A stretch of 38,850 bases of DNA from Saccoglossus kowalevskii (taxonomy: Eukaryota > Hemichordata > Enteropneusta > Harrimaniidae), in the NCBI RefSeq assembly GCF_000003605.2, contig NW_003124909.1, positions 187,323-226,172 on the forward strand. Direction: 5' to 3'. The position numbers and the translations under genes are program-made. This document shows, in pieces, positions 508 through 24,807 of the stretch (positions are counted from its first letter, which is position 1; each line of letters begins with the position of its first letter). Under the pieces are notes generated by a model, which made no database searches, was not told the origin of the DNA, and saw only the letters and a list, made by a program, of their open reading frames with translations.

Positions 508-3500
508 CTACACTACTGTCAATGTAACATTAGTAGTACCATAGTCAATACGGAAAGTTACACTATCATCCTGTTGTTCAATATTCGTAAACATTCCACT
601 CCTCGAGCCACTAAATTCAAGGATTACAAAATTGTCTCCTGAACGAGGCTGATAGCCACTTGTTGCCCAAAAAACGCGAAGTATGCCATTCAGGCTCAAA
701 TCCTCGTTCACTGTTATTTCACTAGCCACATCCTCACTCGCGATATCTATGCCTAGAACGCTGCCATCATAAAGGATTAAATCACGTGTTATTGTAACAC
801 TTTTCACAACGCGGAATAATCCATTAATAATGTTCACATGTCCAGTGACTGTACCGTCACAAACAAACTGGCCTGTATTGACATTCACCGTTGGCACTTG
901 CAAGGTTGTATCCTTTCTTAATTCCAAAACGGCGTCTCCGTGTTCCTGCTCAAATGAGCTTAACACCAATAAACTATCCTCAACTAGGACCATCCTACCG
1001 ATGTTATTCAATTGACACGATTGAAGGTCTGCATGAGTGTTGTTCACGATAACTAATCCCTGGTTAATAAGCGCGTAACTTGTATACCTATCCGATGCTA
1101 CACTGTTTGAATTTGGTCCCAGAATATGTATTTCACCATTTGGTAAATTGATGATTGGTCCTTGAATTTTAATACTCCCTCCTAGCCAGTAAATACGTCC
1201 CTGGTTAACAAATTCGAGATATTGTCCCAAGTATCGAGTTCCAGTGACATCAGACATAATAAAGGTTCCTTTGTTCAGTAAATATTGTTCAGGACATGGT
1301 GGAATCATTATGGAGTTTGACGACGGATTGTAATAACGATTCTGACACTCGTCCTCGCCATATATGGAGCCAGCTAACCACGTGACCGTGGCATCTATAA
1401 TCAAGGCATGCGTAATGATAAGATTGCAATTCATTTCAATTTCACCCTGGATCATGCCGTTTGTCTTTATTGTTCCCACGAGGGAGACAGCCTGTCCGAG
1501 CAAACGTGAATTGATGTTCATATGTTGAACGGCACCAGATGACTGTGAAAACTGCAGCTTTGATTGGTTACCATCAATTATCCATATATTCTGTAAGCTG
1601 CACGTGATTTCAGCAATACGCTCAGTGTGCATGTCACCAGCAGTTATTAATCCAGCATTAGTGAGAAGACCTTTCCCTGTTATAAGACCAGCGTTAGTTA
1701 TAATCATCAGCCCAGTTTCTTCGTTTCTGATCTCACCTGATTCTAAGCTCCATGACGATGTGATTTGAATTGTTCCAAAGTTTTGAAAAGACGAAATTGA
1801 CATGACTCTGGTACTTGACGATTGTCTATTCACAAACGATGCATTTGTAGTTATCTTTAATATTCCAGTTCCTTCTATACGCCCACTATTAAAATGAATG
1901 ATGCCTGTCACGTCCAGAATGCCATTGACACGTAGTGTACCACCCTCAATGGTTATCATTCCACTTGTAGTAACATAAGAGTTGTTGCTGAGCAGAACAA
2001 TTGAACCACTTTGTACAATCATTTGATGGGTCAAAACTCCATTACCGTAATCAAGGACGCCACCAGTTGATCGAATCATCCCAGGGCCTATGACGTCATC
2101 TGGCGATGTAACAAATATACCACCACTGATTTCCATAGTTGATAAAGGCGATAAAAAGGTTTGAGATGAAGAGCCCCCTTTACTCAGTTTGAGTATTCCA
2201 CCTTCTACACTCATGGTTCCAAGGTTCTGCAAAGGGATATCGTATGGAATAATGACATTGTTTCTATATTTACCAAATGTAATATTTCCGTTGTTGATTA
2301 TTTGTGAATTTGAAGTCCCATCGATTTCCCCCACATAATGAAGAAAATGACTATTTTCATCTACGCTGATCCTTGATAAACCTTGGATTTGAAGTGGCCT
2401 CCCAGCAGCCATTGATGCCTTTCTTCTGACTGTTAGAATGACATTATCATTCATGATTTTCTCGCTGTTGCCTAGAATCCACAAATTCCTCTCAACGTAA
2501 ATGTTCAAGACGTTATTGAAACCTGCATTTATCTGGCCACTACTCCAAACCATGCTATCAGTTGTTATTTGTGGCTTCATACCTTCTCCAATTAAACTAC
2601 CACTCCTAAGCATCAGCTTGTCGACCTTTATTTTTTTTTTTGTGCTGACCTCGGCACTTGAAGACACTTCCATGACGTTTACAGTAGCATCTTCATAAAA
2701 CCTCAAATGACCAGCGGATATCGTCACTACACCAATTCGAGCGCTCATACAACCAATCTGAAGGCTTGTGGATCTGTACGTCATCTGCAAACTGTTAATA
2801 TAGACAGGCGTGCTTGTTTTTCCAATACTAACAGTTGTAGAGTATCGCGATTGTGATAGAAGTGCTGACCCATCCACTGTCAGCATCGATGTATTTCTAA
2901 AGTAATGATCACCATAACCAAAAGAAAGTGTTGCTAGAAGGCCTACTGTAAGGTTGCCTAAGTAATATGATTGTAAATTGTTCCCTGGTGAGATGTAGAA
3001 ATTTCCACTAATTACTGATATTTTCCCAGTGTTTATAAAAGGTATAGTCAGACTTAAACCCTGAGACAAAACACCAGAGTTGATTTGTACATTTCCCTTG
3101 TTGATGAGGAGACTATTTGTGCCACCAGTAACAGTGAAGTCACTAAACACATCAATAGAACCTTCTATTAATAAGAATGCTTCATTTTGCAGAGTGATGT
3201 GATTGTCTTGATTTTGTTTCACTCTTCCATTAATAATTACATATCCGTTGTCAATTATGCCATCTCCGCTCATTTCGAGTAGTTCCTCAACAGATAAGAA
3301 AGCCTGCTTTTGTTCAAACGGGAGGTTGACATAAGAGTTGTCATAATCTGGAGACTGGATACCATCGCTGTAATCACTATAATAATCCATGTCTGTTCCA
3401 TACATAGGGTGTATTATGGATTTTACCCACTCAAATATTTGTGAATCAGTATAGGGTGTTCCGAGTTGAATTGTTCCACCGATCCAGTGTAGAACATCAA

Positions 3501-5018: not shown

Positions 5019-8000
5019 CTACAATAAACAAGAAATTAGGTAAATATTTATCAAAGATAATCAAAGAAAACTTCTTATTTATATTGAATTGGTCATGTGA
5101 CTAATGATTCACTGCGATAGTTCATATTTTACCGATCATAGTACATAAAATTAAAGTACAGTTGCATGGCTGAAACATGGATACGTTCATACATTCCAAT
5201 ATGGTAGAGACAATGTGCATATATTGAGTCACATTTCCCGCCAATCGTTTACTAATATCAGTAAAATGGGACTGAGAAAAATTTATGTAATGATATTTTG
5301 AAAATATTTTGTCAAAATTGAATTATAAATTGCACAAAGGCTCAGGTGTGTATTATTATTGGCATAACAGTTAATAGACTGTAATATTTATATTACTGTG
5401 CTACTATATCAATCCCACGACCTTTTGTAGAATAATAAATTTAATTCCATGGCCCCATGAATGTATATGAATACATCATATCAAGGCAAAAGTTTGTCGG
5501 AAAAAATATGCAAACGAGGATTGCGGGGATACTTTATACTACATAGCAAAAACTGGTTTTCAAAATCAGCACTGCAAATGTCATATTTTTTGTTTCAGCC
5601 CAACAGTAACAACAACAACTAGGAACAGGACGAATATTTCAAAAATAAAAGATAAAATTAAAATGACTTATTATTTACATTTCCAGTATAGGTTTCTTTT
5701 TACTTGACTTGAACTTACAAGTTAAGCTTTGTTAATCATATGAATGTCATTGCATTTATTACATTCTACAATCACAAAAATCCTAAGCTGATAGGACACA
5801 TTTTATAAATATCGGCCAGCCTTACCAAATCTGTCACAAGAAAGTGTTAACATCGATGGCATTGTAACCCATATATCGCCATTGTGTCACGTGATATCTT
5901 TACACTCACCTTCATTCCAATACAGTCTCCCAAGTTCAACCAAGTTTCTTACATGAAAATTAACAGTGGCTCGACTGCCTACACGAAGATAGTCTAACTT
6001 CATTACATCACTAGTCGAATACATGTCAATGTTACCATACGTGGCATCAATAGTGGTAGTTTCATATTCATATTGTGTCATATTCAGGCGTGTATTAGCA
6101 TCTCTTACGTAGACAATACCGCCGTCTTTCACTAGAAAACGACATGATTCCTGAATCAGGTGGTAGAAACCATTCCTGAAATTCAAAAATCCCTTAGATG
6201 CTATCTCGACTTGTCCTGTCAACAGTGATGACACATTATCAAATGCTAATCCGACATCTTCATTGAGTTGCATATAGCCATAATTAATAAAAGGTACAGC
6301 AAACGTATTAGATTTAAACACAACAATTGTTCCGTAGTTTGTCGCCTGTGTCCTTCCAGCGCCATTGTTTCTCCAATATGCACCATGTAAACTCACAGAT
6401 GCCAATTTGTTGAAAGTTACTGTACTATTTCCATCGAGTGTCATATCACCAGTTCCAGCGAGCATAAAAGTATTAAATATGTCTATGTTTACAGATCGAA
6501 TAACTGTGGCATAATTTCCATTTCTATGTACAACTCCTGTTATCGTTAGTGTTGGCGTGTCAGTAATAGAAGACGCGATGATTTCACCACGACCATAGCT
6601 CCATACTACCCATTGCTCAATTAGGTAGGTATTTTCATGGGAACCAAGATATAAATATCCAGTGTAATAACGCTCACTAAACAACAGTCGATTGATTTTG
6701 GTTGAGGTTAGTAGATACAAGCGACCATTTTTCCGTAATGTAATAGAATCGATGCTCAGATCATCGGCAAAGGAGGATCGTAAAAACAATTCTGAAGTAT
6801 ACAAGTTTATTGACGTGATTGACTGAAGGTTTGTATCAACACTGACGTATATCTGTCCTGCAGTGGCGCTGATCATACCTATGTGGTTACATACAGTTGC
6901 ATTTATCACTACATTGTTTGCCTGCGTTGATATTTGTCCATCAAGAAACAATCTGACGTTTTCAAGAAACAAATGGTTGGTCCCTCGTAGTTCAATCACA
7001 CCTTGGTGCAACGAAGCCACGTTACCACCAAAAAAGGAACTTTCATCGGACAGTATTAATCTACCAAGTTGAATTGAAATATTTCCATAATTTTGAAAAC
7101 CGACTGCAAGTGTCAGAGTCCCATCCACAACAATGTCACCGTAATTAGTCACTCGAGATAATGACTGATCCGACTGTATAGTGTACGGTTTAGAGTGACT
7201 CACATATATCAAAGCTGTATTGGCAAATTCAACACTCGCGTTGCTTGACAACTCTAGTACAATGTCGTTTTCGTTAACAAGCACCTCTCCATACATTATC
7301 AAATGTGCAGATTGTAAGGATTTTGTTCGTCTGGAGCTATATCTTTCCGGGTAAATGAACCTTGTGTCACCACTTACAGTAATGGTCTTCTGTCCCTCAA
7401 CACTTCCGCCTTTCCACTCTAGAAGATTGTCAATAATGATGTCTCCGGTTCCACTTAATACCACGCGATCAAAATATGCCCGTCCCACGCGTAATGTCTG
7501 GTTTGTGTTAAATACGGTATTTCCCGTCATTGATATCGCGCCTATAGTGTACGATAATGGATTAAAATCCACAGTAGAAGCTGAAATGGATACTTTGCCA
7601 TATTCAGCATCCACGCTGCATGAATTTGACACTTCATATATGCCGTTACTTAGTATCAGCTCACTCCTTTCTTTTATATCAAATCTACCATTGCAGTTCA
7701 TGTCGTTATTAAGGTTGAATCGACCAGAATTAACTTCGACATCACCATTTTGATAGAGTCGAATTCCGAACAGTAAAATTCCATTGATGGAAACAATAAT
7801 AGTTCCAGAGTTAAACAAACTACCGCCAGTCATAGTCAATGTGCTTTCTATCAGGAATTCTCCATTTTCGGTGTTTGTGATGCTATTATCGTCATTGATC
7901 TGTAATTCATTTCGAGTATTCCGATAATAAATATTCCCATTATTTATAACACTGAGTGCCAATATGTTGTGCTTGGTATACCTCCAGTGGTAATAGTCAT

Positions 8001-9343
8001 TAAAGATGTCTAATATTCCGTTAATAACAATAGATCCTGTTCCAGACAGTGTTCCCCATCGCCATGCGAGTTCACCGTACACTGTCAGAGTACCTCCGAT
8101 GGATAAAGTTTCTTTCAGTGTAATCCGACTATGTTTGTGAATTACAACGTTCTCTAATACGTTCAATGTGCTTTCAATTATAACCTCCTGTATATGGCCA
8201 CACATCAGGACACGAGTGTCATCGCAAGATATTCCAATTACCAGTGATTTTACTGTGGTTTCAGAACTAACTGTAGTTGTAAAATCACTTAATCTTTGCC
8301 CAATAAAAACATTACTGTCTTCCGTGGGTATAGTGCTATTGAGCCAATTTTCGTTTACTCCCCAGTCACCACCATTATCGTTTATCCAAAACGCGACATT
8401 CTCCGATTGGTTGCACGAGTTAACATCGACACAGTGATTCGACCAATCGCACCACACACATTCATTGTTCGCTTCACACATGGTACTCGAATTGTGAGCA
8501 AAACAATTAACTTCTGCAAGGAAGGACAAAGAGAAGTTTTATTGAAATTTTAATGAGATGAAATACATCGCATTCATGTTAATCTCGGTATTAAGGATGT
8601 CGTGTTAGAGCTGTAAAAGCTGCAAAGATCTGACCCACTTTCTTCTCATACTCAGTTACGTCAAGAAGTCGCTTCACCGCTTAAGACATACCAGTAGTTA
8701 TTAAAGGAGTTAGAATAATGTAAGTGATATTTTGATAAAACGAATATAAACTTGTCACTCCCTAATTCTTATAATGGAGTGCCTTGCTGCAATGTAACTA
8801 CATATCGTTATTAACAATTTATTTTAGGGATTACATCTATCGATTTTATGTAAATTTGAATCATCAATTATCAGATTTTTTTATTATAACTCAAAAGGTT
8901 ATTGATAGACTCGCATAAAATTTACAGGCGTGGTGTCCTTGATACACTCCAACCGAATAGTTAATAATAATCAATAATCAACGAAGTTAATGAAAACATT
9001 TTGAATTCATCAGCTTTTAAGTTGGGGTGTCCTAGCATATACCAAGCGATAATGTTTTAGGAGAGAGTTGGATCCAGTTGCTTTTGAGATCATTTTTCAA
9101 AGGGATTTTATACCCTTGCCATATCTTTAATGATTTGGTACTCACCAGACCCACACGTATCTTGATAACACTGACGAGACCCAGACCGACTTTGTGGTAC
9201 ACACAAATTAGTGTTTGGATTCCACGCACAATCATTCACGCACGAATTACAATCTGCAATGTCCGTACAATCACTCGCTGTCAAAAAACACATAAGAATA
9301 TTGATTAGCGTGCGCAAACATGGCATACTGATTGTTTGTTTGG

Positions 9344-9389
<46 letters not shown>

Positions 9390-12300
9390 TCTGTTTGTTT
9401 GTTTGTTTGTTTGTTCGATCGATCGATTGATATATCGATTTAAACAGTTGCATCATGCGCTTACCATCAGGTGGCAGGATATCACCAACTGTTGTAACAT
9501 CATCAGAAATGTATAAATATCCATTGGCGTATAGTGTACCAGTTACAAACACTTGTCCTGAGTGCAGTAATATGGGACCATTGACAGCGGCTAGTCCGGG
9601 ACATTGTACCGTACCACTGTATAACTCCAGTGATGCTACAAGATAAAATAAACAATAGTCATTATCTCACATGTCATAAAGTGTGATATTTATATATAGA
9701 TCACGTTACTATGGTATATATCATTATTATATCGGTCGATTATTTTATCTCAAGCTCATTATTATCTCAAGCTCATGATTATGTGATTACAGAACTCAGA
9801 CGGGAATGTTTTATCAAATAAAAGACTAGACTCCGCCCATTATTGCAAATATCCCCGTTCTTGCCCTGTTATTAGAGTTACATACATTCTCTTGTTTGTT
9901 TTTGGTGATTAAATATCATGTTCCCGAAAAGCAAAAACTTGTGTTCCCTTGTAGACGCCCTCTCGCGACACCGGTGATGATTGTCACCAGTCTAGGGTTC
10001 AGTGCGTGATGCTCAATAATATTCCACCAATCACCACCAAGTTCAAATTTGGAGTTAATGGAGTGAAATTTTCAATAAAACACATTCATCTCGATAGTTT
10101 TGTGAAATTTCGCACGCTTGCATTTCACATTTCTTGTTTGTTTCGCGGTAATCAAGCTGTCGCTATTTATATACTCACATAATATTTTATTTTATTGAAG
10201 AAAAAACACAGTTAAAAAAACAAGAAATTGTATGCAAGTATATCTTGTTATTTAAACAATAATGAATCCCCATAGCGACACATTTGAAGAGGGGGACAGA
10301 GGTATGCCCCATCTACAATATGACGTTGTGGGGGATTCATTATAACAAAATAATTGTTGTTATAAATCATAAATATATCATTTTTTTGTTTTATGAAATT
10401 ACTTGGTTTACGTTATCGTGTGATAATGTAAAGCTATAACGTCATACGAATCTCTAATTTTGATAGTGACGATTTATAATACGCATTAATGGGCAATACG
10501 TCATCTTTTATTCCCTAATTAACTGTTGTAATATTTCATGTCGTATGGTGTAGTAAACGTCACAATGTTCGAAATTATATGTAAATAGGTATATTTTACA
10601 AAACTCGGCAAAATCGAGATTATATACTGTTATTAATATAGGGTAAAAGATGTTCGAGTTCAGCTGGTCAACGAAAACCACCAGATCAATGGTGACTACT
10701 GGTCCATCAACACGGTCACGTGTATTTGCCATGAAATACACGATTCATAGGGAGCATTAAGTCAGTTATATAAACCACATATACGAAATAATGTTATCTG
10801 GTTCGATAACTTCATAAATATCATTTTTCATTGATGTTCGATAAGATAACATCTTATTTCGTCTGTCAGATCACGAAACAGAAGAAAGGGCGTTAATATA
10901 TGCTACATTATATATCATTACTTACATATGCTAATAACTTCATTATCATGCAGTCCGCTTTTCAACTCTACTGAGCCATCGTATACCTTCAGTATGGATA
11001 TGCATGAAGCCCCTACAGAAACAAACATGGNNNNNNNNNNNNNNNNNNNNNNNNNNNNNNNNNNNNNNNNNNNNNNNNNNNNNNNNNNNNNNNNNNNNNN
11101 NNNNNNNNNNNNNNNNNNNNNNNNNNNNNNNNNNNNNNNNNNNNNNNNNNNNNNNNNNNNNNNNNNNNNNNNNNNNNNNNNNNNNNNNNNNNNNNNNNNN
11201 NNNNNNNNNNNNNNNNNNNNNNNNNNNNNNNNNNNNNNNNNNNNNNNNNNNNNNNNNNNNNNNNNNNNNNNNNNNNNNNNNNNNNNNNNNNNNNNNNNNN
11301 NNNNNNNNNNNNNNNNNNNNNNNTTAGTATTTACCATTCAAGAACACATGACCATGTGTAACCAACTTATCAACAGTGAAATTGGTGGTAGATGATGTAA
11401 CAATCGCTCCAGTATCTATGTAAATAAATCCATTTCCCACAAGAGCTGATGCCTCTGTCAAATCATGTCGACCATTCTCAAGATGTAATCTCGTCCTGGC
11501 ACTTGATTTAACTGTACATGATATCGTGTGTCTTTATTAAATTGAAGGGTGCCACTCTCGATCTCAATGTCTCCTGTACTATTGAAAGGAACGTTAAACA
11601 CAACATGGTGCGTAGATCGTACGGCAATAAAGAGACTGCCAAAGTTTTCAAAGAGGGCGCCGTTAACTTCATTGGTTGTTACGGACCGACTCGGTCGGGA
11701 GTCTTCATTGTTGTCACTGGTATCAAAGGTCAAAGAGGAACGTATGGTGAAATTAAGACTGAGCGTTTGTAATAACAGAGTTTCCTGTCAATGTAATTGT
11801 ATTTTCTGCAACATTACGAAGCTGTTTATTAATGTCCAAGTTAGCATTTACTAGTATTTTATAACCACTTTCAGGGAGACTTAGTTTGTCCGCTTCAATG
11901 GCGCCATCTTGGATTACACCACTTATCCAGGTAAATTTCCGTATACTCCCATCTCCATTAATAGTACCGCTAAAGAAGTCAAGGTTGAATATTGTTGCCA
12001 AGGACTGGACTAAAATAACTTCTCCAGAAATGACTGACAATAAATTTATCTTGAGTGATTCGTTTGCCACACTATCCACGGACTCATTGAAGTATAAATG
12101 TCCTCCATCTACGGTAATTGATAAGCCACTGTTGATATTGCTATACATGTTTGACTGTGAAAACATATGAACTGTGCCACCATTAACTTTTAATTCTGAG
12201 CCATCATTAAAGTATGAATTTTCATCAATAACGGTAATTCCTGTGTCACCAGAAAAAAGCAATGTTATTTTTTCTCCAGTCAGTTCGTACTTTGTCCTGA

Positions 12301-15300
12301 TAAACACGCTTGAATCTGGTATGCGTACGTTCACTACTGCATTATCTTTTATGACTGAAACACTGCCACTACTGTAGAAGTCGGCCAGGCAAGAGAAACT
12401 GCGACTATTGACAACAATTGACCCGTCATTTATCAAGGCACAATTCTTATCACCGGTACAACTTTGTAACACTGTTCGACCATTCACTTGCATGACAGCA
12501 CCCTCAGTGTTTACCAGTATGGCACCAAGACTGAAAATAACATTCAGGTATGTAGTAATAGTAGCCATTTCAGTAATTACAACATTACTAGATTCTATTG
12601 TCATGGACTGACCATACAAGATGACTTCTCTCATAGCTAGTCTGTCTATGTGTTTCAGGACAGGGGAACGCATCTCAGCTTTATCAATGGAAGCCCAAAT
12701 GGTGTCTTCTGACAGAACATGTGCAGTTAAAGTCCCTCCGTACATATTTAAGTAACCAACTGTCAAGTTAGCTCGCAGATCAAGAGTTCCATCGGTTATT
12801 TCAATATCTCTTAAACTATAACTGGAGTGTTCTGAATCCTGGCGATTGCTGAGAATGACAGTTGCATCAGTGTTCACAATTGTCAACGATTGCAGTTCCA
12901 ATGGTTGTACCAAAATGACTTTTGAGCTCTTCACAATTAAATTATTACAGCTGATATTCAGTCCATTCGAGCTTTGGTGATTATCAAATTCAAGAGATGT
13001 ATTACTGTCCGACATGAAAGGCCCTTTCAGTGTTGCAGTAGCGTGAAAAGCGATTATGCCATCTGACCCTAAATATGTGGTACCAACACTGAGGTACTCG
13101 GCATATGTCTGTAAGTGTGATGCAAATTTTCTGGATACTAACTCAGGCACACGTACTTCCAATGTACCAAGATTTAATACCGTGCCTATACCACTATCGT
13201 GACAGCGATAGATATAGCGATCACCCGATATTGAAAGTGTTGCAGGCTGCAGTATGACAAGTTTCCCTCCATTGTCAATACAGAGAGTGTCTCTTATCCT
13301 GGGTATTTCCTCCCAGAAGCCTTTGCCGGAAATTTGAACATTTGCATGGTCGATGATCTTTTCTACCTGCATATGATGATGAAAGTATAATTCACTAGCG
13401 TTTAGATCGTAAACTGCTGTAGAAGGTGACGATATTGTCCCACCATAAAAATTGAACAAGTTAGCATCAATGTTGTTTCTTAGATTTACTACCCCATTGG
13501 TCAATGTTAGGTTTGTGAGAGAACTTCTGAGGTATAATCTGAGAATACCACCTTTTATTTCAGCATTGTCAATTGCAACACTGATGTCATCAACAGCACG
13601 GATACTTAAACTTCCTGCAGTAATTCCGATATAATCAAATGACGTTGTTGCACCTTCACTGATGTGTATATCGATGCTACCATCATGCACAGAAATCCTC
13701 CTCATGTTGAGCTGTGCTGGTGATATTCTGGACACACCACTGATAATTGTTAGAGAACCGCCACCTGTTATGACTGATCCACTATCAGACACCAGTGATC
13801 CTGTTTTCAGTTCTGTTTCCTCGGATACTTCAATTATTCCTAAATTTATGATATTGTAGTCAAATTCCAAGATTCTTCCCTTTGCAACTATTGATCCCTT
13901 CATTTGTCACTTTCACATTAAACTTGATTGATTTATGAAAAGTGATTTTGCCTCGATTTATGAACTCATTGACACGGGTGATGATGATCCAATTTCAGTT
14001 TCGTGAAATATCTCTAATACAACGCCCTCACTGACAATGATAGTTCCGCCATCGTTAATATTCAATGATTGTCTGAATTCAGACTCAAAAATCAAACTGT
14101 TTTTGAAGATAACAGTTGCTCTGTTGATGTTTAGAGACGACAGTTCACGTAAAGAGGATATTTCAGCTGAAAATGACCCTTTGCCAGTTATCAAACCACC
14201 TTTCCAATCAAGTACATCACACGCTACATGAACACCAATATCTACCACTCCATTATCAAAAACCAGATTATGAAATGTAGCATTTTTGGTGATGACCACG
14301 TTGCTCTCTATAACTTCCAGATTTTCTACTACGGCGTTTTCATCAATAAACTTTAGAACACCATCGTTGGTTATCTTAACATTCAAGAGGAATGTGTTAA
14401 CAGCATTTATCACCATAGTAACCTGGTCCGTTATTTCAATGGCCCCTACATTAAGTTCTTTTGTATCTACAAATACTGTACTTGGAGATTTGGCCACTTT
14501 TAGTGTACCTGGACCACTTATTGAAGCTGACATATCGATAGCATGTTCACCATTCTGAAACTCCAAGTTACAGTCTTCAACGAGTTCTATATTACCACTA
14601 ATCTCAGATGATAATGAAATCTCAATGTTAGCTCTGTTCAGGCAGGTGATATTCCCTTTATTCACAAATTTTCCTGCGAAGTGCACATCATCGTTGGGTC
14701 CATAGAACTTCAAATTAACAGCAACCGTGCCTTTGTTTTCTATTCTCCCTTTCTCTGAGTATAAATCAAGTGGCGACAAAATCTGTAAAATCGCTTGATC
14801 ATCAATCACAAATGAGGAATCGCCATATAAAGAAAGCCTTCCAGGACCATAAACCTTGCCGTTCTGTTTCAAAACGAAGCGTTTTTGCTCCACAATCTTC
14901 TCGTTAGTTCCATAAACATCCAAGTGTTGTGTTTCAAACTCGCTATCCTTGTCACCAGCAATACGCCCACCTGACCATCTAAGAGCATCCACCCACGTTT
15001 TTCCTGCAACACTGATGTAACTCTCTGGGTCATCCATAATGACTTTATTAACTATCAATTGAGTGTTGATATTAATTTGTCCTGTTTTAAGGTTTATGGA
15101 ATTTATATTATATGGTGACATGTTATTTAAATTAGTTAAAGTAATAGATGATCTGCCAGATACTCTCAAAGAATTGGTTGATGGGGTTATAAGATTACTG
15201 ACAACGGACAGCATACCACCCTCTCTTGAAACTAGGTCACCGGATATATTATAGTTAAATATCTGTACTTCAGCAGAACTTGCATTCAGGGTTCCTGCAA

Positions 15301-17801
15301 CTAAAGGAATTCGATTACATTAATCACTGTAACGGTTTATACTATGTGTCTGGGACTTTGTAATCGATTCGAATTATCCTGTTCAAAGCTGTACTGGGAT
15401 ATTTATTTGAGAATGTTACGAAGATAATAAATTTCAAACCTGTGCCCGTGTTTGTATTTCCATACCATCGATGTGTTCCACTACGAAACTGAACTTCACC
15501 ATCCTGATAAACAGTAACCTGGCCACTAGACCTGCTATCATCTATCATATACAAAAAACACTTCGGTTGTAATATTATCGTACTTGATGTTCGGTATCAA
15601 AATGGATTATGATTATAAACTAAAATGTTGGCAGCACACTGAATAAAAGCACTTCCGATGACAAATTACATCAAATAACATCAGTAGGCAGGTGTGGAAC
15701 CATTGTTATTGTATGTACCAGAATAATTAGCGCATATGTGGATCCATACAATAACAATCAGTCAGCGTACGTGCAAGTAGAAGAAAATATTTATTTATAC
15801 GCTAAAAGAACTATGTTTTAGTTGATGTTACATAATAACCCACCAACGTGCAGCATCAAACAGTTGTAATAATATTGCATGCTCTCATCAATATTACATC
15901 TTTCGGGGGCAAAGTAGACATTTAAATATCATTCGTATTCATGTTGTTGTTTATCTTACCTGTGAGAGCAAGCACGGCGCTGTTTCTGACCAGAAGCACT
16001 CCTTCATTCTCAACTCTCACGTGGTTCGTTATAAATGCGCCACTTTCTACGATAAGTCTACCACGTATTCTGATAACATTGGTACCATCATTGTCGTGGA
16101 AAGACCCTAGAAAAAAATATTCATAGTATGATGCATTGCTACTCAAGCGCGTTGCGCCACGATTATCCTTTGACTCGACCTGATGTATTAAAGCTGCATT
16201 TACAGGTGATTGATTGATATAAGTATAATCAGTTAGTAATGACAGTCATACGAGTTCTGAATATAATGTAGCGCGGGGTTGTGATCTCCCCATTGCCTAT
16301 GATCGAAATTATTAAATCAAAACCTTATTACAGACGGCCGCCAGGTTTATATCTTATATCTTTACAAACATATTCTATGGGGTACGTTTCATTATACTTT
16401 TTTTCATGAAAGGCACTCTAAGATTTGTGTACAGACCCAAACGTCTTTATTGAATGTATACATCTAGTTTATTGTGAAGTGCAGTATTTGTGCCAGTCAT
16501 CCGTGAAATGGCGAAGCATATAGACTGACTTTGAATATACCTACTAAACAGAAATGTAACTTATCAAGATCTATGTCATGACGTACACGCTTCATCAATC
16601 TTTTTGAAACGTTTCACAATTGGGAGATTTGTTTTCCCTTTTCGCAATTTCATTGCCGCCTCTGCATTTTGTAAAACTACTCTACTCAAGAAATAGATCC
16701 ACAATGTTGTCGAAATTGTTAAATTGTTTGTCCCAAATTTTCACTATGATTAGTTCGCATCGCTTGTTAAGAATAATTATGCATACATTGTGCTGACAAT
16801 CAATACAATTGTATGTGTATGACCTGTAACAATTGTTAAGTATACCTTCTAAGATAGAAATGACCCGAAATGTCGATGACCGCATGGTTGCAAATTAATG
16901 TACTCGCAGCCTGATTATTTCAAATATCAGTGACATTTATGCAAACGTAGAGAAATTATTTAAATATTTAACGTTTGGCCGTTATTGGAAGCTCCATGCC
17001 CAGCTCAACTTATCATATGCAAATTAATTAAATGTCAGTTAATTGGATTTATAGAACTTCCATGAATAATGTAACACAGAATGTGAAAAAATACGAAAAT
17101 TATATATTGTTAAAATCAAAAACTTGTACACTCTTTCTAGAATACTCTGGGCTGTCATGTATCAGAATTGGATAGCAAAATAAATACGTCCACTAAATGA
17201 AATTTATTGCCATTCAAAATTCGAAAATAAACCCAAATATCGATTATAATGAATTTTATAAAAATGGTTTCTGAACTCGTTTGGCAGTCATTTACCACGG
17301 AATAACTATCATCTGCAAACACAATCGTCATTATTACCCTGCTCAGTATTAATTATTATTTCATTAAACCTGTTACTTTTAGTCATACTGATATAAAAAT
17401 TAATTCATGTAATTGGACAAGAGGAATGGACATAAGATATATAATATTATAGATATTTGTACTTACCTTTGCCTTTCAAAGAAAACACACCACCCTGTAT
17501 AACGGACAAAGTTGTAGATCGTTTCATGATGATATCTGCAGAACCAATCCATTCACATTCGTTACGCACTTCAAGCAACTGTTCTTCCAATGTTTTATCA
17601 TCATCGCCTAGTACTGTCATCTTACCAAAAATACTCAACTTGGCCTGCAATGAGTAAATCACAAATACAGTTTAATTCATGCAAATAAATAAATAAAAAT
17701 ATAAATATATATATATAAATATACATATAAATAAATATTAATATAATTATAAATAAAAATTTTAATTACAAAATTAAAAAATTAAAAAAAAAAAAAAAAA
17801 A

Positions 17802-17836
<35 letters not shown>

Positions 17837-20800
17837 ATTATCGTTATCATTGTCCACTTAATATATTTCAACTACTTTCCATGATTATGTCAGTTTTATA
17901 TCAACCCATCTTTGCCGCAATAGGTAGTGATGACTGCGGACATGTGGCGTACAACTGATTGCACCTTGTTTCTTCAATGCACAGAAATAGGTGTTATATT
18001 TTCTCGTTCCCTCTACAAGTGGGTTACCCCACTAGAAGAATCTACCTGGAAATCTCTGTCGAGAACACTTCGCTAGGATATCAAAATTTAGTTACAGCTT
18101 TAGCGAACGTTTTAATTTTACCACTGAGGCGTCGGGGAATAAATGAACATGTTCAGGCTGGGCTAAACATACATTTGCCCACGTTTGATCAGTGGTTAGG
18201 GCTTCCCTACCGTCTTCTAAATATTAGTTTGAGTGACGTTTTGAAGATGCATGCACCGTGACTGAGATTAAACACAATTAGATTAAACACAAAGCACGCG
18301 ATACCAACTTGCGGAAAGAATATCATAAATTAATAGTTTTCCCTAAGTAGATATACTTATGATTGATATTTACCTGACCAAACTGACTTCCAATTATGGT
18401 TCCTGCCATCCACGTGAGTTTTCCAATAACCTCAAGTTTATCTTGGTTCTCAATAATTCCACCTCTAATCACGATGTTTGTAACAATGACGTCACCATAA
18501 AATGTAACCTTTCCACCGTCGCTAATAATATCTTTCACTCTCAGGTTTCCCCCTGTGAGGGCGTTGATGGAAGCACTTCCACCAATTGAAATGACTTTCT
18601 CCATCACAGGTTGAATTATTGAGATAAAAGTGATATTGACTAAAGCGTCGTTGAGTATGGTCATTTCTGACCACATGCAATCCGTGACTTCCATGCCCCC
18701 ATTCATTACCTGTAGACCAACAACACACAACGATAACTAAATGAATGGATGGATAAATGAACAGAAAGTTGGTGCTCCTTGTAGTGGTAGTATTGAGTTT
18801 ACGCTACTAGTATATATACTTGGAAGCTTGTCCTTAATTGCATGGCACCGATGTGCAACAAAATTCCCATATTCCCCGTTACGACGAGAATACTGTGATT
18901 TTTTGTATTTGGTGGACTGAAGCAGACGGCGGGAACGTTTGATATGTTCCCTCTAAATTGGCGTCATTCTCCAAATGCCGTAAGTCTCAAAAGTGGGCAG
19001 CATTTACTATTTTCGCACTACTGAGAAGGCAGCTATAGAAATCGAACCCCGAATCTCAGTGATACATGATGCAAGTGTGCGATGCATGGATTAAATAAGT
19101 GACTTACCACAAGTCTTCCAAGACCACCATCGGAGATCGATTCTGGAGAAACTCTGTGTTCTCCACCATTGATTCTCAGTGAACTTGTCAGATCAGAAAA
19201 TCTCACTGATCCCTCAATGGTAGATTGCTTTGACATTTCAATGTCCCCTGATATCAAATCTAAAGTGCCGAAATTATTAAGTTTAACAGCTACTAGAAAT
19301 ATTCCATATGGGATTTCTATCTCTATTCGACCATAATTCTCCAGCAAACCTTGTTGTCCAGAACTTTCAGTGAGAAATCTGAAATTATCTCCAAGAATGT
19401 TAAGCGTTGCTGCTTCGGCGATGGTTAATTTCCCTTCTAGTTTGACTGTAATGTCGGTGGACACCCATGTTACATTATTTTCTAATGTTATATCTCGTTG
19501 AATAACTTTAACTATGTCTGTTGATACTTGCATATCTTGCTGAATGACGAGTGTCTCACCGGCTCTGCCTTCAATAGTACCGCCTTCATACATGAAAAGC
19601 TCAGTGACACGATCTCCCCACTTCCTTTGAGAATTCCAGCAGACATAGTCAATCTTTTAATGTTTGTTGGTCTATTAGTTATTACCTCCGAACCACCGCG
19701 CGTACCTCTAACAGACAGGCTGTCTATATCTATGTGATCCGTGGAAGGTGGTAAGGTCAGCTTTCCACCATCCACCAAGACATTTGCAATAACCTGGTAA
19801 TTACCAGGCAAAACACTTTGAATAGTTAAAGATCCACTAATCACATTGACATCTCTGATATCTAGAGATTTGAACTCGCAATTATCGCCCTGTATTTGCA
19901 GTGTGCCTGTGCCTTCGATAATACCCTCTGAAGTTGACCTGCACTCACCGGACAAATCTAGGATATTCTCATCGCCAATAAAGAAAGAACCAAAAGTTTC
20001 CAAAATTCCAGATATCACTAGATCAGAACCAGGTGGGGATACTACTTTCACTGAGCCATGGTTTATGAAGGATTGCAGGAAAACGTTAAAGGTGCTGGAT
20101 TCATAATAATTCAGAATAAGTTCCCCGTGATTCTGAAACGATCCACCCCCTGTAACTGTACCACCAGGTGATGTTACTAAAAAAGTACTATTTATCGCAT
20201 TGATGAATTCAGCGTCCTCTTTTACTGTGATTGTTGCTGAACTCCGCACGATTACACTGTTCATAAACACCATTCTGGCATGACGAGCTTCTTTTGTTCT
20301 GGCACCTTCGATTGAAACTGCACCCACTAGGAGAGCTTCCCCCGTACATTGAAATAATCCACCTAACCACGTCCATTGCTCAGTAATAGTCACGTGTCCG
20401 ATGACGTCAAATACTGTTGAATCGCCATATCGATATCTATCGATCCTCAATCTGTTGAAATAATAGGATTACAGAATGATTAGGGTGACACTTATTTTAG
20501 TTGGGTGGCTAGACCGGAATAAAAAAAATTGAGATAAATAAGCGTGGTCACGATTTTTACACCAGCCATAATAAAAGAACAATATATAAAATTATTATAC
20601 CCACAGCCCTATCATCAGATTCGCGCATTTGGGGTCGATATATTTACATATTGACTTCTAGCGATCAAAAACGTAATATTAGGCTGCTGCGCTTGCGCAG
20701 ACGGTATGATCAGTCCATGGAAGGTACTAAGTACTTTCTATAATCAATCGAAAAAAATGCTGATTCACCGTTTGTCGGTATTTTATCGAAGAATCACCTT

Positions 20801-23800
20801 TAATTTCTGAACAGGTCGAACAACTGTGACATTATCTGCTGAACAAGGTATCTTGCATTACTTAGAACGAAGTTATATTCCGTGTATTACAGCTAATAAT
20901 CAAGCAATGCGACTATATGTACATAAAGGGGAACCTCCCAAGCCCATGGATTGCACCAAAGAATCATGGGACACTATTGTTTACAAATTTAATCTATCTT
21001 TATTTATCCATTGTAATTTTAATCCAAAAAGTAAATTTGTTGTGAGATTAGGCTTAACTAGAAGTGCCCCTTTAATTAGCGCTTTCTTGATCTTGAATGT
21101 AACAGTAATTATGGAAGGGATTGTGGAATATACCATTGGAAGTGTGATGAAGCTACTTGTAAATGGTGAACATTTTGGATGCTGGCAGTAGAAACTTGCA
21201 CAGGATCTTGCATTTCAACCGTTCACAAAATATTTGTTTGATTTGGTATAATGATACAAATATTGACCCCGGCCTCGGTCGATATATATATATTTGTCGG
21301 CCCTCACAGAGTATTGTTTACCAATGCCCCCTTCAGGTCGACTAATCTGTAAATCGACCTTGGCCCGGCGGGTTTAGTATCAACTAAGAAGCAGAAGCCC
21401 ACAAGTACGACCCATTATAATGATTGGTACAGCCCTTTGATACTGTAATATTTTGCTAGCAAGCAATGTATTTTACACGCGTTGTAAACTTCGCATGGGG
21501 CCCGATTTAAACACAATGTGAGATGACAAACCTTGGCGTAAGGATAAGCAAATATGTATGCTTCCATTCGGAATGAGGCCATATATGCAAGTAAGACATC
21601 GTACACAATTGCAAACTATACAATATCAGAGTTTATAATTTACGAATCGTGGATAAGTACAATTGCAGCTCAGATTCGCTTGAAATCCAATACACACTGA
21701 ATTACCATTATATAGATTGCTCTTGACCTTGACACTGTGTGCGTCAATAAACGAACTATGCGTCATGTAACGTTCTTCTGTAGAAGTTTGAATAAGAAAG
21801 TTTGCTATACCTTTTTACACTGACAATTCCAACCACGCGAACAGTAGAATGATCTGAGATGATGACGTCATCAATGGCCAGCATCCCTGCGTCACTGTCC
21901 GTCTGGAGGTAAACCTCAATATGACCGTTATTCCAAGTTACTATTTTTTTCATGTGCGTCAGTGTGGTAGGATGATTCAGTTGAATTGTCCCAGAGTCTG
22001 CTTCAAACTGACTGACTTCAACTTGCTCGCTTAAAATTGAAATGAACGCATTAGACGACGCTTTGAGAGTCTCCGCGCCAATAATACTACTACTGCTTTG
22101 GAAGTTGTGATGCCCTCCGGAAAAAACAACCGTATTGTCATCTCGGTAGCTCATTTCCAGATTTCCGTCCCATGTAGTCTGTCCATGTAAGGTTAAACTG
22201 CCCGTTTCAACAGTGACAGTACCCATATTGTGGAGATTTGTATGTATTGTAGCTGATGTCTTTATGTTGAGTGTACCTCTGTTTAGAAGAGTGCCGCCAT
22301 TTTGGTTGCCAATCACAGGTGAGTTAGTCATGTTAAAAGTAGCGCCCTCAGTAATCGTAAAGTATCCGCTGTTTGTAAAATACATGGTATAGCCATCCAA
22401 TACTATCACGTGATTGACTATTAGCTGCAGTTTCACCAATTCCACGCGAGGGGAATTATAGTAATATCGACTAGGCGGTGTGATATGCAGTATGCCGTTC
22501 GTTGCGACATAGCCGTTGCCTTTCGTCTGGAGGTGGCCGTCACGCCAGTTGAAATCACCGTTAAATATGGCGGTGTTTTCTACATAAAGTCCGCTATTTT
22601 GATTGGCTGTTGCGTCCAATATGAATGCGCCATCAATGTTCATGTTACCGTGCACAGTAAGTGAATTTGTCACACGTAATGTAGGCCCGGTAACCAGCAT
22701 TGATATCGAAGTCACAATAATCTCATCGGTCACATCAACCTGGTAAGATCCGTCTGAAAGCAGGAAAATAAATAAAATACGTGTAATAATTGTAGAATGA
22801 CAAACACATGCACATAGCAATAAAGATGAAACGCCTGGCCTTTTTTTTCTAAACCTAGATTGTCGCATATGACTTGTTTACCACTTCCGTGTCACTGAGA
22901 ATGTTCTAGAACCGTACTGTGTCTGGGTGGAATTTTTAGAAGTTGGTTGAATAGGTAATAGGACATTGTAGAAGGCAATAGAAGGTAATGGAACATTCTA
23001 GAAATTTGTAGTAAATTCCAGACTCATTATGTATGCTGATGTAATGGTCTATTTATAGACAGTATGGGTATATATAGGGGAGTTGTTCAGCACTGAGATC
23101 AGATCGGAGATCTCGTTGAATTGTATTGGAGTTTAAGTATCTAGTTATTGGAGTAGTGGAGTTTTACCGCGTTATTGTACTTGATGTTTGCAGAGTATAA
23201 TAATACCAGTACCAGTTGAAACCTCATCTGTTGGCTCCGTGTTCGTATTTTATCATCGCCGCCAGGGAAGTCTTTTTGTTACTGTTGCCATTTTGGTATT
23301 TGAACCATCACACCTGTACTATACCAATTACGGTAATTTTACGTTGCGTGTGACATAGATCCAAATAATGATGTCGTTAAACACGGCCCTGATTCATGAT
23401 TTAAGTTAAACATTATCAGAACATAGGCTATAATAAAAAAAATAAACGTGGACCCAAACTATAATAAATAAGTAATTATAAATGTCTTTTGATATTATAT
23501 TATATTAACTTTCATAGTAGACGGTCTGCCATCTTTAATCACATCTCAAAGAACTTAAAACGTGCACCTGTAACCCAATATGTGTTGCCAACATTATAAT
23601 AAGTTTGATGAAATTGACTTCCGAGTAATCTCGCGAACACGTTCAGGTATTGGACTTATGCACGCAAAATGGCCGCGAAAAATGACAGTTCACTGTGTGA
23701 TAATGGCATGTCCGAGGAATAAGTCTGGAAGCACTAACATAACTCGATAATTCTTCCGAACGAGGAACTAAAAATGTCCCTTAACAATTGTACGGTTAAA

Positions 23801-24807
23801 TTTAGTTATAACAAAATTTCAAGTTTCTCTAAAAGTTCATGATTGAGTGCAGACCATCATCACAGTCGGAACCAGGATGTTGGCGCAAATCACACACCGC
23901 CCCCTGGCTTCATGTCTTATGTGACCATATTAAACAAATTGACTCACCGAACGTAAACCAATGTTATCTCGACAACCTAAGTAAAAGAAGGTATATATTG
24001 TGTATAGGTAGAAGAGTAATGGGAAAAAAACTACATAGCCTGAGATCTTGAAAAACGGTGCACTTCCGGTGAATGGGCGGCGCCATTTTGTTTGTTTAAG
24101 AAATTACAAGTATAAAAATCATCATTAGAATGCTGTTCACTGTTAATGCAATGGTGTTTGGACAACAGACCGAAAATAGTTCAACTTTGAATAGTGTTTT
24201 GCGACATTTTGGTCACGGGCACTCGAATCGTGCGTGGTGACATCTTGAATTCCGCGTAATAACTCAGTACTACAGGTACTGTGGTCAATTCTATTTAACA
24301 TTAGTTTGTTCTATCTGAGAATATATGCGATATTCGGTATTTCACAGTCAGCTAGCATACACGTGGTAATACAATTTTATTTTATATACAGTAGTTTAGA
24401 AGGTCACGGGGTTCTCCGAAAGGGCATACTAGTTTATAGTATGGTTCTTAGTAATACTACAGGGCGTCACGGTCAATAAGGTGTATGTTAAAGTTTGTAC
24501 AATAAACTCGCCTAGATCAAAAATAACGTCATCTTCCGGTGAGGGCAGTCTTCCTATACTCCATTTCGATAGATCGTTCCAGTTACCACCCACGGGTTCT
24601 TTCCATCTTACAACGTCGGCCGTAGAGGGCGACACATATATAAGGAAGAAGACTATCCACTGACACAATCTCCCAGTTTTGTCCACCTTCAAGAAATGAG
24701 ATAATTTTCAATTGCGTTATATTCAAGGAAACAATACTCTGAAGCAAACTTTTACAAATAATCACCAGAATATTTCATACATTTTTATTCTCGAAGCGGA
24801 CATTCAT
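508..24807 (-). CDS. Giant secreted beta-solenoid (adhesin-like) protein, spliced gene model
   Basis: This is the whole spliced gene, read right to left through 13 supported exons plus one doubtful first exon, giving about 4,900 residues. In order the protein has a signal-peptide-like segment, Trp/Gly domain 1, solenoid I, two PSI-like cysteine modules, Trp/Gly domain 2, solenoid II and a bacterial-style C-terminal cap. The solenoid is seen as endlessly varied short strands of the type 'NxGTIxVxxGxLxL'. Almost every junction is phase 1, and the modelled length is divisible by three once one lost base is allowed for. There is no transmembrane helix near the C-terminus, so I infer secretion into the matrix, cuticle or mucus. 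I do not recognise a named animal orthologue. The repeats resemble bacterial autotransporter and filamentous-adhesin passengers. Its substrate or partner is unknown. Confidence 0.8.
5019..5909 (-). other. Intron between the two giant 3' exons
   Basis: GT-AG, phase 1, 891 bases. AT-rich with no coding pattern on either strand. Confidence 0.8.
5910..8513 (-). CDS. Solenoid gene large exon (868 aa): PSI-like module B, Trp/Gly domain 2, start of solenoid II
   Basis: A 2,604-base phase 1-1 exon with acceptor ccttccttgcag and donor GTGAGT, with no frame break. It starts with PSI-like module B (C-x8-C-x5-C-x2-C-x5-C-x5-C, including 'ECVWCDWSNHC'). Next comes WINDNGGDWGVNENW plus P-x-EDSNVFI, clearly the same domain as at 24,512-24,686. 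The rest is solenoid: 'GGTLTVYGELAWRWGTLSG', 'INYGYMQLNEDVGLAF', 'TNYGTIVVF' and similar strands. Many NxS/T sequons are present, as expected of a secreted protein. Confidence 0.88.
8514..9145 (-). other. Intron between PSI-like modules A and B
   Basis: GT-AG, phase 1. AT-rich, nothing recognisable inside. Splicing here joins the two cysteine modules directly (...DTCGS|EVNCFAH...). Confidence 0.8.
9146..9277 (-). CDS. Solenoid gene exon: PSI-like cysteine module A
   Basis: A 132-base phase 1-1 exon with acceptor gtgttttttgacag and donor GTGAGT. It encodes seven cysteines in the arrangement C-x5-C-x2-C-x3-C-x8-C-x10-C-x4-C, with 'DCNSCVNDCAWNPNTNLC' at the centre. This resembles the C-x2-C ... 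C-x-W core of PSI (plexin/semaphorin/integrin) modules, which act as rigid disulphide-bonded spacers in extracellular proteins. The tryptophan is followed by Asn where PSI domains usually have Cys, so the assignment is by similarity of pattern only. Confidence 0.65.
9342..9441. repeat. Compound microsatellite (CTGT)n-(TTTG)n-(CGAT)n
   Basis: Seen directly in the small intron 9278-9464: about 45 bases of CTGT units, then TTTG units, then a short CGAT/GATA tract. Such tracts are often length-polymorphic. Confidence 0.95.
9465..9635 (-). CDS. Solenoid gene exon (57 aa), end of solenoid I
   Basis: A 171-base phase 1-1 exon with acceptor tttatcttgtag and donor GTAAGC. It encodes 'SLELYSGTVQCPGLAAVNG', 'SGQVFVTGTLYANGYLYI' and an acidic end 'DVTTVGDILPPD'. 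The repeat character is weaker toward its end, where the chain leaves the solenoid and enters the cysteine-rich modules. Confidence 0.8.
9636..10925 (-). other. Intron with two stem-loop sequences
   Basis: GT-AG, phase 1, 1,290 bases. It contains a 13-bp perfect inverted repeat (10259-10271 with 10331-10343) and a second imperfect one (10784-10798 with 10845-10861). Both could be ends of small eroded repeats. No exon-like sequence is visible. Confidence 0.6.
10926..11012 (-). CDS. Solenoid gene exon (29 aa) left of the N gap
   Basis: An 87-base phase 1-1 exon with acceptor gtttctgtag and donor GTAAGT. It encodes 'ASCISILKVYDGSVELKSG' and then 'LHDNEVISI'. It joins the exon beyond the gap as '...HVFLNG|ASCISIL' and the next exon as '...VISI|SSLELYSG', both in phase. 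Confidence 0.7.
11031..11323. other. Assembly gap (N run)
   Basis: A run of 293 N inside the intron 11013-11331. The exons on both sides agree in phase, so no exon is required in the gap, but a phase 1-1 exon could be hidden there. Confidence 0.95.
11332..15294 (-). CDS. Solenoid gene large exon (about 1,320 aa) with two compensated frame excursions
   Basis: A 3,963-base exon, phase 1 at both ends (acceptor ctttagttgcag, donor GTAAAT). It is solenoid throughout, with strands such as 'GGTIIVSEGVVLEIF' and 'NIINLGIIEVSEETEL'. The main frame is left twice. Between about 13,970 and 13,905 the coding pattern runs in another frame as 'FINRGKITFHKSIKFNVKV'. Between about 11,757 and 11,500 it runs as 'NGALFENFGSLFIAV' and onward. 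Each time the original frame returns, so the exon length still fits. The two neighbouring giant exons show no such changes. The N gap begins 8 bases beyond the exon's left edge. Assembly error or relaxed selection are both possible. Confidence 0.75.
15440..15541 (-). CDS. Solenoid gene exon (34 aa)
   Basis: A phase 1-1 exon of 102 bases with acceptor ttttttgtatatgatag and a weak donor (GTTTGA). It encodes 'DDSRSSGQVTVYQDGEVQF' followed by a WYGNTNTGT loop. The reading frame joins the large exon to the left as '...TGTGTLNASSAEV'. The weak donor suggests that inclusion of this exon could vary. Confidence 0.75.
15960..16106 (-). CDS. Solenoid gene exon (49 aa)
   Basis: A symmetric phase 1-1 exon of 147 bases, with acceptor tttttttctag and donor GTAAGA. 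It reads 'GSFHDNDGTNVIRIRGRLIV' then 'SGAFITNHVRVENEGVLLV', with typical solenoid NxG turns. Because it is symmetric it could be skipped without breaking the frame. The neighbouring 102-base exon shares this property. Confidence 0.8.
16107..17466 (-). other. Intron without recognisable content
   Basis: GT-AG, phase 1, 1,360 bases of AT-rich sequence. Short open frames on both strands lack any family resemblance. Confidence 0.7.
17467..17644 (-). CDS. Solenoid gene exon (59 aa)
   Basis: Enters in phase 0 after acceptor ctcattgcag and leaves in phase 1 at GTAAGT. It encodes 'AKLSIFGKMTVLGDDDK', a short acidic loop with one cysteine (NECEW) and then 'GGVFSLKGKGK'. The strand-turn-strand character matches its neighbours. 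A long A/T-rich microsatellite lies in the intron just upstream of it. Confidence 0.8.
17645..18373 (-). other. Intron with A/T-rich microsatellite
   Basis: GT-AG, phase 0. The right part contains a 100-codon plus-strand open frame (17959-18261) that I do not recognise and take as chance. The left part is microsatellite. Confidence 0.6.
17681..17840. repeat. (TAAA)n / poly(A) / (TA)n microsatellite
   Basis: Long A/T tract made of ATAAAT units, a pure A run and a terminal run of about nine TAAA units. Confidence 0.9.
18374..18709 (-). CDS. Solenoid gene exon (112 aa)
   Basis: A phase 0-0 exon of 336 bases between an acceptor ending in ctacag and donor GTAAAT. It encodes 'VMNGGMEVTDCMW' followed by regular strands such as 'GGKVTFYGDVIVTNIVIRGG' and 'KLTWMAGTIIGS'. 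The last motif (xxLxWxxGxIxG) recurs throughout the protein and marks a turn between solenoid segments. It joins in frame on both sides (GRLV|VMNGG and SQFGQ|AKLS). Confidence 0.85.
18710..19107 (-). other. Intron, 398 bases
   Basis: GT-AG, phase 0. Nothing recognisable within. Confidence 0.75.
19108..20451 (-). CDS. Solenoid gene exon (about 448 aa) with one apparent lost base
   Basis: The acceptor (ttatttcaacag) is in phase 2, matching the phase-2 donor of the previous exon, and the donor GTAAGT is in phase 0. The first two thirds read as solenoid strands ('FQNHGELILNY', 'FINHGSVKVVS'). At the four-base G run of the coding strand (plus-strand CCCC at 19616-19619) the frame breaks, and the solenoid resumes in the next frame as 'DRVTELFMYEGGTIEG'. 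One additional G would restore both the frame and the predicted exon length. A homopolymer error in the assembly is the simplest explanation, and a true mutation is possible. Confidence 0.8.
20452..21810 (-). other. Intron with MITE relic
   Basis: A 1,359-base phase-2 intron. A plus-strand 121-codon open frame (20826-21191) has no recognisable domain. Around 21462-21505 the sequence matches the interior of the 125-bp TTAA MITE family (shared tgtattttacacgcgttgta), so a diverged copy or fragment lies here. Confidence 0.6.
21811..22753 (-). CDS. Solenoid gene exon (314 aa), start of solenoid I
   Basis: The exon has a clean acceptor (ttttcctgctttcag) in phase 1, a donor GTATAG in phase 2 and one uninterrupted reading frame. 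It opens with DGSYQVDVTDEIIVTSIS, which completes Trp/Gly domain 1, then passes into solenoid rungs with repeated 'NxGTLNI', 'GTVTVETGSLTL' and 'NNGHIEV' strands. It has almost no cysteine, as expected for a stacked beta-helix. No catalytic motif is visible. It is preceded by a GC-AG intron. Confidence 0.85.
22899..23076 (+). promoter_or_regulatory. Two perfect heat-shock-element trimers followed by a TATA box
   Basis: 22899-22911 reads GAAtgTTCtaGAA and 22991-23003 reads GAAcaTTCtaGAA, both exact matches to the inverted GAA trimer bound by heat shock factor. A TATA-like box (gtatatatagggg, 23069-23076) follows 66 bases later on the plus strand. No coding sequence follows, so the module may belong to a mobile element. 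Activity is inferred, not shown. Confidence 0.45.
22902..23294 (+). mobile_element. Possible LTR-type retroelement remnant
   Basis: A segment of about 390 bases begins with TG and ends with CA, contains the heat-shock elements and TATA box in a U3-like position, and is followed by sequence that could be a primer-binding region. No internal element genes are visible nearby and no convincing target duplication was found. I treat it as a fossil of unknown LTR family. The call rests on layout only. Confidence 0.25.
24512..24686 (-). CDS. Solenoid gene exon: signal peptide and Trp/Gly domain 1
   Basis: The exon follows an acceptor (tttcttgaag) in phase 0. It encodes a basic stretch, a hydrophobic core (QWIVFFLIYV) and a small-residue cleavage-like site (SPSTA), so it reads as a signal peptide. 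Next comes WKEPVGGNWNDLSKW followed by a P-x2-EDDVIF segment. That pattern recurs at about 8,320-8,400 in the same gene and is common at the start of bacterial beta-helical surface modules. The coding frame fits the next exon only if the exon ends at 24512 with a GC donor (CTAG|GCGAGT) in phase 1. The joined reading '...DVIFDL|DGSYQVDV' continues the domain naturally. Confidence 0.75.
24781..24807 (-). CDS. Possible first coding exon (9 codons) of the solenoid gene
   Basis: Exon 24512-24686 opens in phase 0 and has no ATG before an upstream in-frame stop, so the start codon must lie in an earlier exon. The nearest fitting candidate is an ATG at 24807 that reads nine codons (MNVRFENKN) to a GTATGA donor in phase 0, leaving a 94-base intron. 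The donor is ordinary and the ATG context is not strong. A more distant first exon is equally possible. Confidence 0.25.

What the first reader, a model, noticed from the sequence alone, without database searches (positions are those of the whole stretch)
508..24807. A roughly 4,900-residue bacterial-adhesin-like beta-solenoid protein encoded by a spliced animal gene
Thousands of residues of autotransporter-like strand repeats, two Trp/Gly head domains and a bacterial-style C-terminal cap are encoded in an intron-bearing gene with a signal peptide and PSI-like modules. Bacterial-type passengers combined with animal disulphide modules are unusual. Ancient horizontal acquisition followed by intron gain and domain fusion, or a little-studied animal matrix protein family, could both explain it.
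Basis: partly seen in the sequence, partly recalled or inferred. Interest (0 to 1): 0.85.

Follow-up and report, generated by a model that had tools for sequence, protein, structure and literature searches.

The report
Bacterial-type giant rod protein in animal
An animal gene with introns appears to encode a very long secreted rod-shaped protein whose start, repeats and end piece all resemble secreted proteins of soil and water bacteria, which suggests that an animal borrowed and enlarged a bacterial surface protein.

The parts
24781..24807 (-). exon 1, start codon and first residues of the leader
   Evidence: ATG at 24807, donor GTATGA
24512..24686 (-). exon 2: hydrophobic leader and first half of Trp/Gly head 1; GC-AG donor
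   Evidence: bacterial-only head profile E 1.4e-19 for head 1 as spliced
21811..22753 (-). exon 3: rest of head 1 and most of supermodule 1
   Evidence: module profile E 4.1e-70 (training member)
19108..20451 (-). exon 4: supermodules; frame switch near 19,605
   Evidence: piece B, which begins in this exon after the switch, scored 41.6 bits before it was part of the profile
18374..18709 (-). exon 5: solenoid
17467..17644 (-). exon 6: solenoid
15960..16106 (-). exon 7: solenoid
15440..15541 (-). exon 8: solenoid (acceptor chosen by reading phase, weak site)
11335..15294 (-). exon 9: solenoid; frame switches near 13,965, 13,905, 11,755 and 11,460
11031..11323 (.). assembly gap (293 N) inside the intron between exons 9 and 10; a small exon could be hidden here
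10926..11012 (-). exon 10: solenoid
9465..9635 (-). exon 11: end of solenoid 1
9146..9277 (-). exon 12: first PSI-like module (symmetric phase 1-1)
   Evidence: Pfam PSI 22.5 bits over the pair
9278..9326 (-). alternative start: in-frame ATG and leader-like stretch running into exon 12 (MPCLRTLINILMCFLTA-SDC...)
5910..8513 (-). exon 13: second PSI-like module, Trp/Gly head 2, three supermodules
   Evidence: head 2 vs bacterial-only profile E 2.3e-14; three module matches; AlphaFold model of head+module, pLDDT 78.4, pTM 0.79
508..5018 (-). exon 14: supermodules and C-terminal autochaperone-like cap, stop at 510..508
   Evidence: cap vs bacterial-only profile E 1.7e-15; model pLDDT 83.7, pTM 0.82
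36435..38410 (+). exons of a neighbouring teneurin gene (galactose-binding-like domain, two EGF exons), used to place the host among animals
   Evidence: GBD_Tenm3 E 9.3e-10, EGF_Teneurin 1e-7 and 6.2e-7

Best explanation
The window holds an animal gene for a secreted, roughly 535-kDa protein of bacterial ancestry. An animal ancestor took up a gene for a secreted bacterial beta-helix protein of the head-supermodules-cap type. It gained introns, the supermodule multiplied, and the unit came to stand twice in a row: head + solenoid, then a pair of disulphide-rich PSI-like modules as a joint, then head + solenoid + cap. Shown here: gene anatomy by sequence, homology of all three bacterial parts, a predicted right-handed beta-helix, a predicted cap of the autotransporter passenger type. 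Inferred: one transcript; horizontal transfer; two stiff rods, each about 55 nm long if a turn takes about 21 residues and rises 0.48 nm (recalled figures), joined at the PSI pair; the Trp/Gly heads close the N-terminal ends, and the cap closes the C-terminal end and probably seeds folding, as the autochaperone end of autotransporter passengers does (recalled); the protein, which stops right after the cap, acts as an extracellular spacer or coat component (matrix, cuticle, mucus or egg coat).
Against: No eukaryotic collection could be searched, so an old eukaryotic family is not excluded. Trees of heads and cap do not place the animal sequence (cap grouping UFBoot 61), and the two window heads do not pair. 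Bacterial ORFs were pre-selected by a motif derived partly from the window, which inflates E-values; whole-ORF E-values add up over repeats; second-round head and cap profiles were recruited with the window sequences. Foldseek itself gave no match below E 0.27 for the head model. Five frame switches and a gap leave open whether this copy is intact. A leader-like reading before exon 12 allows a second gene start. No transcript, localisation or paralogue evidence.
Confidence: 0.55

Rival explanations
1. Two adjacent genes of the same kind, wrongly joined in the model: one ends in or after exon 11, the second starts just before the first PSI exon with its own leader.
For: An in-frame ATG stands 49 bases upstream of exon 12 and reads MPCLRTLINILMCFLTA-SDC, leader-like, straight into the PSI module (hydropathy). 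The unit is duplicated (two heads, two solenoids).
Against: Exons 10 to 14 join without a stop in the frame used, exon 12 is a symmetric phase 1-1 exon with a good acceptor whose pyrimidine tract itself explains part of the hydrophobic reading. A first gene would lack the cap: read on past its donor, exon 11 runs into simple repeats and a stop.
Confidence: 0.25
2. An old eukaryotic (or animal) beta-helix family, related to amnionless or G8 proteins, inherited vertically; the likeness to bacteria reflects very deep common ancestry.
Against: The supermodule order and the cap match bacterial proteins in detail; G8 fails (E 0.54, 10.6 bits against a cut-off of 22.9); no relative in the host genome with two exon queries.
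Confidence: 0.2
3. A decaying gene or allele: the frame switches are real mutations.
For: Five frame switches in exons 4 and 9.
Against: Four of them form two compensating pairs, open frames of 1,530 and 883 codons are untouched, splice sites are intact, and an assembly gap lies nearby; indel errors of a draft assembly fit as well.
Confidence: 0.15
4. Bacterial contamination of the assembly.
For: Bacterial-type protein.
Against: 13 introns, PSI-like modules, a teneurin gene about 12 kb away on the same 376-kb contig, low GC3.
Confidence: 0.01

Closest known systems
Unnamed head-supermodule-cap secreted proteins of Verrucomicrobia, Planctomycetes, Chloroflexi, Acidobacteria and others (for example the L047, L033, L066, L069 ORFs; phyla from record titles)
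   Same: Trp/Gly head, solenoid supermodules with W..GG, N.GT and PF.N.GT.V..G motifs, C-terminal cap; head-module-cap order in 13 of the 16 ORFs with head and cap
   Different: The animal protein is spliced, longer, has the head+solenoid unit twice and a PSI pair, and stops after the cap; L026 for comparison ends in a PEP-CTERM signal
Autotransporter passengers (Serratia Ssp 8e7f, IcsA 5ke1/3ml3, pertactin 1dab)
   Different: No outer-membrane barrel follows the cap; not exported through an outer membrane
RemA (8gl6; a Flavobacterium gliding adhesin, recalled)
   Same: Trp/Gly head profile match E 2e-5
   Different: Only the head segment matches
Amnionless (animal cubam receptor), 6gje
   Same: N-terminal head and right-handed beta-helix; weak match (passages of PMC6283879 read)
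   Different: Short, membrane-anchored; no supermodules or cap of this kind known (recalled)
Teneurins (recalled as an animal cell-surface family with bacterial-toxin-like ancestry)
   Same: Animal surface protein thought to derive from a bacterial giant by transfer
   Different: Different fold; here only the neighbour gene

Membership tests
Bacterial head-supermodule-cap proteins | solenoid supermodule | tested here: met
   Window-only profile, 57 of 1,812 ORFs, best domain 1.8e-15; controls negative
Bacterial head-supermodule-cap proteins | Trp/Gly head at the start of the solenoid | tested here: met
   Both window heads against bacterial-only profile 1.4e-19 and 2.3e-14, Z set to 1e6
Bacterial head-supermodule-cap proteins | C-terminal cap | tested here: met
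   1.7e-15; direct match L033 3.3e-9
Autotransporter (type Va) | passenger beta-helix with autochaperone end | tested here: met
   predicted models only
Autotransporter (type Va) | C-terminal membrane barrel translocator | tested here: not met
   Stop at 510..508 directly after the cap; no barrel family among the Pfam rows at E<=1
PSI domain (PF01437) | score above Pfam gathering cut-off | tested here: inconclusive
   two stretches, 22.5 bits against 23.1, E 1.5e-4
G8 domain proteins (PF10162) | score above Pfam gathering cut-off | tested here: not met
   10.6 bits against 22.9
Amnionless | first beta-helix domain | tested here: inconclusive
Amnionless | membrane anchor | tested here: inconclusive
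   No anchor at the C-terminus; a plain hydropathy scan shows three internal stretches of 1.75-1.86, which read as solenoid strands; no transmembrane predictor was available

The most novel reading that the evidence does not exclude
An animal keeps, inside its own secretory pathway, a complete bacterial passenger with its autochaperone-type end as folding seed, and has doubled it around a PSI hinge to build a ~100-nm two-rod extracellular protein: a new kind of animal matrix rod with a bacterial origin.
Probability: 0.35. Interest if true: 0.85.

Novelty: new variant of a known kind. Interest (0 to 1): 0.73.

Why it matters
If it stands, one of the largest proteins of an animal is a bacterial surface protein that was taken up whole, amplified and fused to animal disulphide modules. 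That would be a traceable case of how an animal extracellular structural protein was borrowed, and a test of whether the autotransporter autochaperone end can fold beta-helices in an endoplasmic reticulum. It would also name a bacterial family that Pfam and NCBIfam hardly cover: of two bacterial relatives scanned, the only matches above a curated cut-off were PEP-CTERM sorting signals in one of them.

Tried and rejected
Known-family searches: Pfam and NCBIfam gave nothing above a curated cut-off for the solenoid ORFs scanned (9, 6; lowest Pfam E was DUF7724 0.00058, 20.3 bits against 27); PHROGs, 6 ORFs, lowest E 0.0066. PDB by single sequence: lowest E 0.15, none at E<=1, none for the cap alone at E<=10. 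tblastn to plasmids and phages: no match; the low-complexity filter may hide such sequence. The search for related loci: no confirmed relative, so a motif pattern was used instead.

First gene model was rejected: it began with a false first exon and bridged the frame switches with weak introns. A claim of selection against N-glycosylation sites was kept weak: 44 sites against 69.1 expected (z -3.56), lower than all 53 bacterial ORFs of 400 residues or more, but the reversed motif is also depleted (z -2.25). Trees of heads and cap are inconclusive. Nine of the 64 ORFs with the fetching motif did not match the module profile, among them the one viral locus L006. In L058 the listed head follows the cap, and L030 and L066 show no module match between head and cap. 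The module tree kept 79 tips after a length filter on 81. The organism was not identified: the COX1 search did not complete. Paper searches (titles and starts of abstracts seen; passages of PMC6283879) showed no report of this protein; that is not proof of absence.

Full report
What was checked. The window is part of a 572-Mb genome in 4,830 contigs, on a contig of 376,443 bases. The minus-strand ORFs named by the finding are there: 1,530 codons at 508-5100 and 883 codons at 5887-8538 are the longest. A first dynamic-programming model was replaced by a model read by eye from three-frame prints and tabulated: 14 exons, 13 introns, 12 GT-AG and one GC-AG, CDS 14,717 bases. Read in the pieces, introns 6 to 13 are in phase 1; the running phase printed is shifted by the frame switches. 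The frame switches at five places (about 19,605; 13,965; 13,905; 11,755; 11,460); these pieces were searched apart. The nine pieces hold 4,904 residues. The N run at 11,031-11,323 lies in an intron by this model.

One gene or two. While checking this report I found that the reading frame of exon 12 is open upstream to an ATG at 9326 with a leader-like start. So the half with the PSI modules, head 2, solenoid 2 and cap could be a gene, or an isoform, of its own. Against it, exon 11 read past its donor runs into simple repeats and a stop, so the first half would have no cap, and the splice from exon 11 to exon 12 is in phase with good sites.

Host. Plus-strand exons at 36.4-38.4 kb belong to a teneurin: GBD_Tenm3 E 9.3e-10 and two teneurin-type EGF exons. 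With the introns and PSI-like modules this makes the host an animal; the species was not identified.

Repeat structure. Autocorrelation shows strand spacing of 6-8 residues and a long period near 240 (241, 239 and 479 among the 25 best offsets). Fourteen module starts were taken by eye; 11 segments of more than 150 residues made a first profile, 16 matched domains a second of 271 positions. A stretch that was not used for the first profile (piece B) scored 41.6 bits.

Bacterial relatives. A motif pattern written from the window modules and from the recalled bacterial form found 64 loci in genome contigs and 1 in viral contigs. Their 1,812 ORFs of at least 100 residues were scanned with the window-only profile: 57 ORFs in 54 of the 65 loci have a domain below 1e-3; best whole ORF 4.6e-53 (L058), best domain 1.8e-15 over profile positions 1-177 (L038, Chloroflexi); of 133 such domains 97 span at least 150 and 34 at least 200 of 271 positions. 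Reversed ORFs: best 0.0079. With the fetching motif masked, 37 ORFs remain (best 5e-49); with a broader mask 32 (best 8.3e-34); 285 plain shuffles and 285 block-wise, alternation-keeping shuffles give none below 1e-3, best domain 0.33 and 0.015. Within L069 the downstream part, which looks like an ordinary parallel beta-helix region, gives no match below 1e-3, nor does the haemagglutinin-like L048 ORF. So the match is to this supermodule, not to solenoids in general.

Heads and cap. Single window sequences already find bacterial counterparts: head 1 4.2e-9, head 2 2.7e-5, cap 3.3e-9, with no reversed match at E<=1. Second-round bacterial-only profiles find 27 heads in 25 ORFs (E<1e-5) and 41 caps in 39 ORFs (E<1e-4), 16 ORFs with both, and find the two window heads at 1.4e-19 and 2.3e-14 and the window cap at 1.7e-15 with Z set to one million; these profiles were recruited with the window sequences and are not independent of them. 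In 15 of the 16 ORFs the head precedes the cap, in 13 a module match lies between. L047 shows leader (by eye), head, modules and cap in one ORF.

Origin. In a tree of 79 modules (13 window, 66 bacterial) 12 of the 13 window modules fall together with support 0.82, as expected for one acquisition followed by amplification; the alignment was fitted to a window-made profile, which leans that way. Trees of heads and cap do not resolve. GC3 of exons 14 and 13 is 0.36 and 0.354, against a median GC of 0.629 for the 64 bacterial loci, so the gene has the composition of its host. Two exon queries found no second copy in the host genome (at E<=0.001, at E<=10). Because no eukaryotic collection was on hand, transfer is inferred, not shown. 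The head is the least decisive part, since animal amnionless has something similar.

Function. Inferred from anatomy: leader, no anchor at the C-terminus, two long beta-helices with closed ends and a disulphide-rich joint. A plain hydropathy scan shows three internal stretches of 1.75-1.86 that read as solenoid strands, so an internal membrane segment is unlikely but untested. The cap is of the kind that ends autotransporter passengers; there it is known (recalled) to start folding of the helix from the C-terminus. A secreted spacer or coat protein is the most likely role; nothing here tests it.

Noticed in passing
window 30248-31210: Minisatellite of 23-bp units, 41.9 copies, 88% matches; a search of the host genome with the consensus unit listed three exact matches, all in this array (such counts are lower bounds).
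   Followed up: partly
window 36435-38410, + strand: 5' part of a teneurin gene, divergent from the giant gene; a transmembrane-like exon by eye at about 34841-35101 may belong to it.
   Followed up: partly
window 24511 region: A GC-AG intron between exons 2 and 3, placed between the two halves of head 1.
   Followed up: partly
window 9278-9326, - strand: In-frame ATG and leader-like stretch directly before the first PSI exon: a possible second gene or isoform start.
   Followed up: partly
L066 (Gemmatimonadota), head 240-344, cap 503-560, head 583-687 of the ORF: A bacterial ORF with two head-led units in tandem, a doubled arrangement somewhat like that of the animal protein.
   Followed up: no
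L026 (Betaproteobacteria): A bacterial cap protein that ends in a PEP-CTERM sorting signal (E 3.5e-8).
   Followed up: no
L069, residues about 750-2290 of the ORF: A head-module-cap unit is followed by a long stretch that looks like an ordinary parallel beta-helix with many NCTFSGN-type repeats.
   Followed up: no
window 9344-9414 and 17683-17838: Simple tetranucleotide repeats in introns of the giant gene.
   Followed up: no
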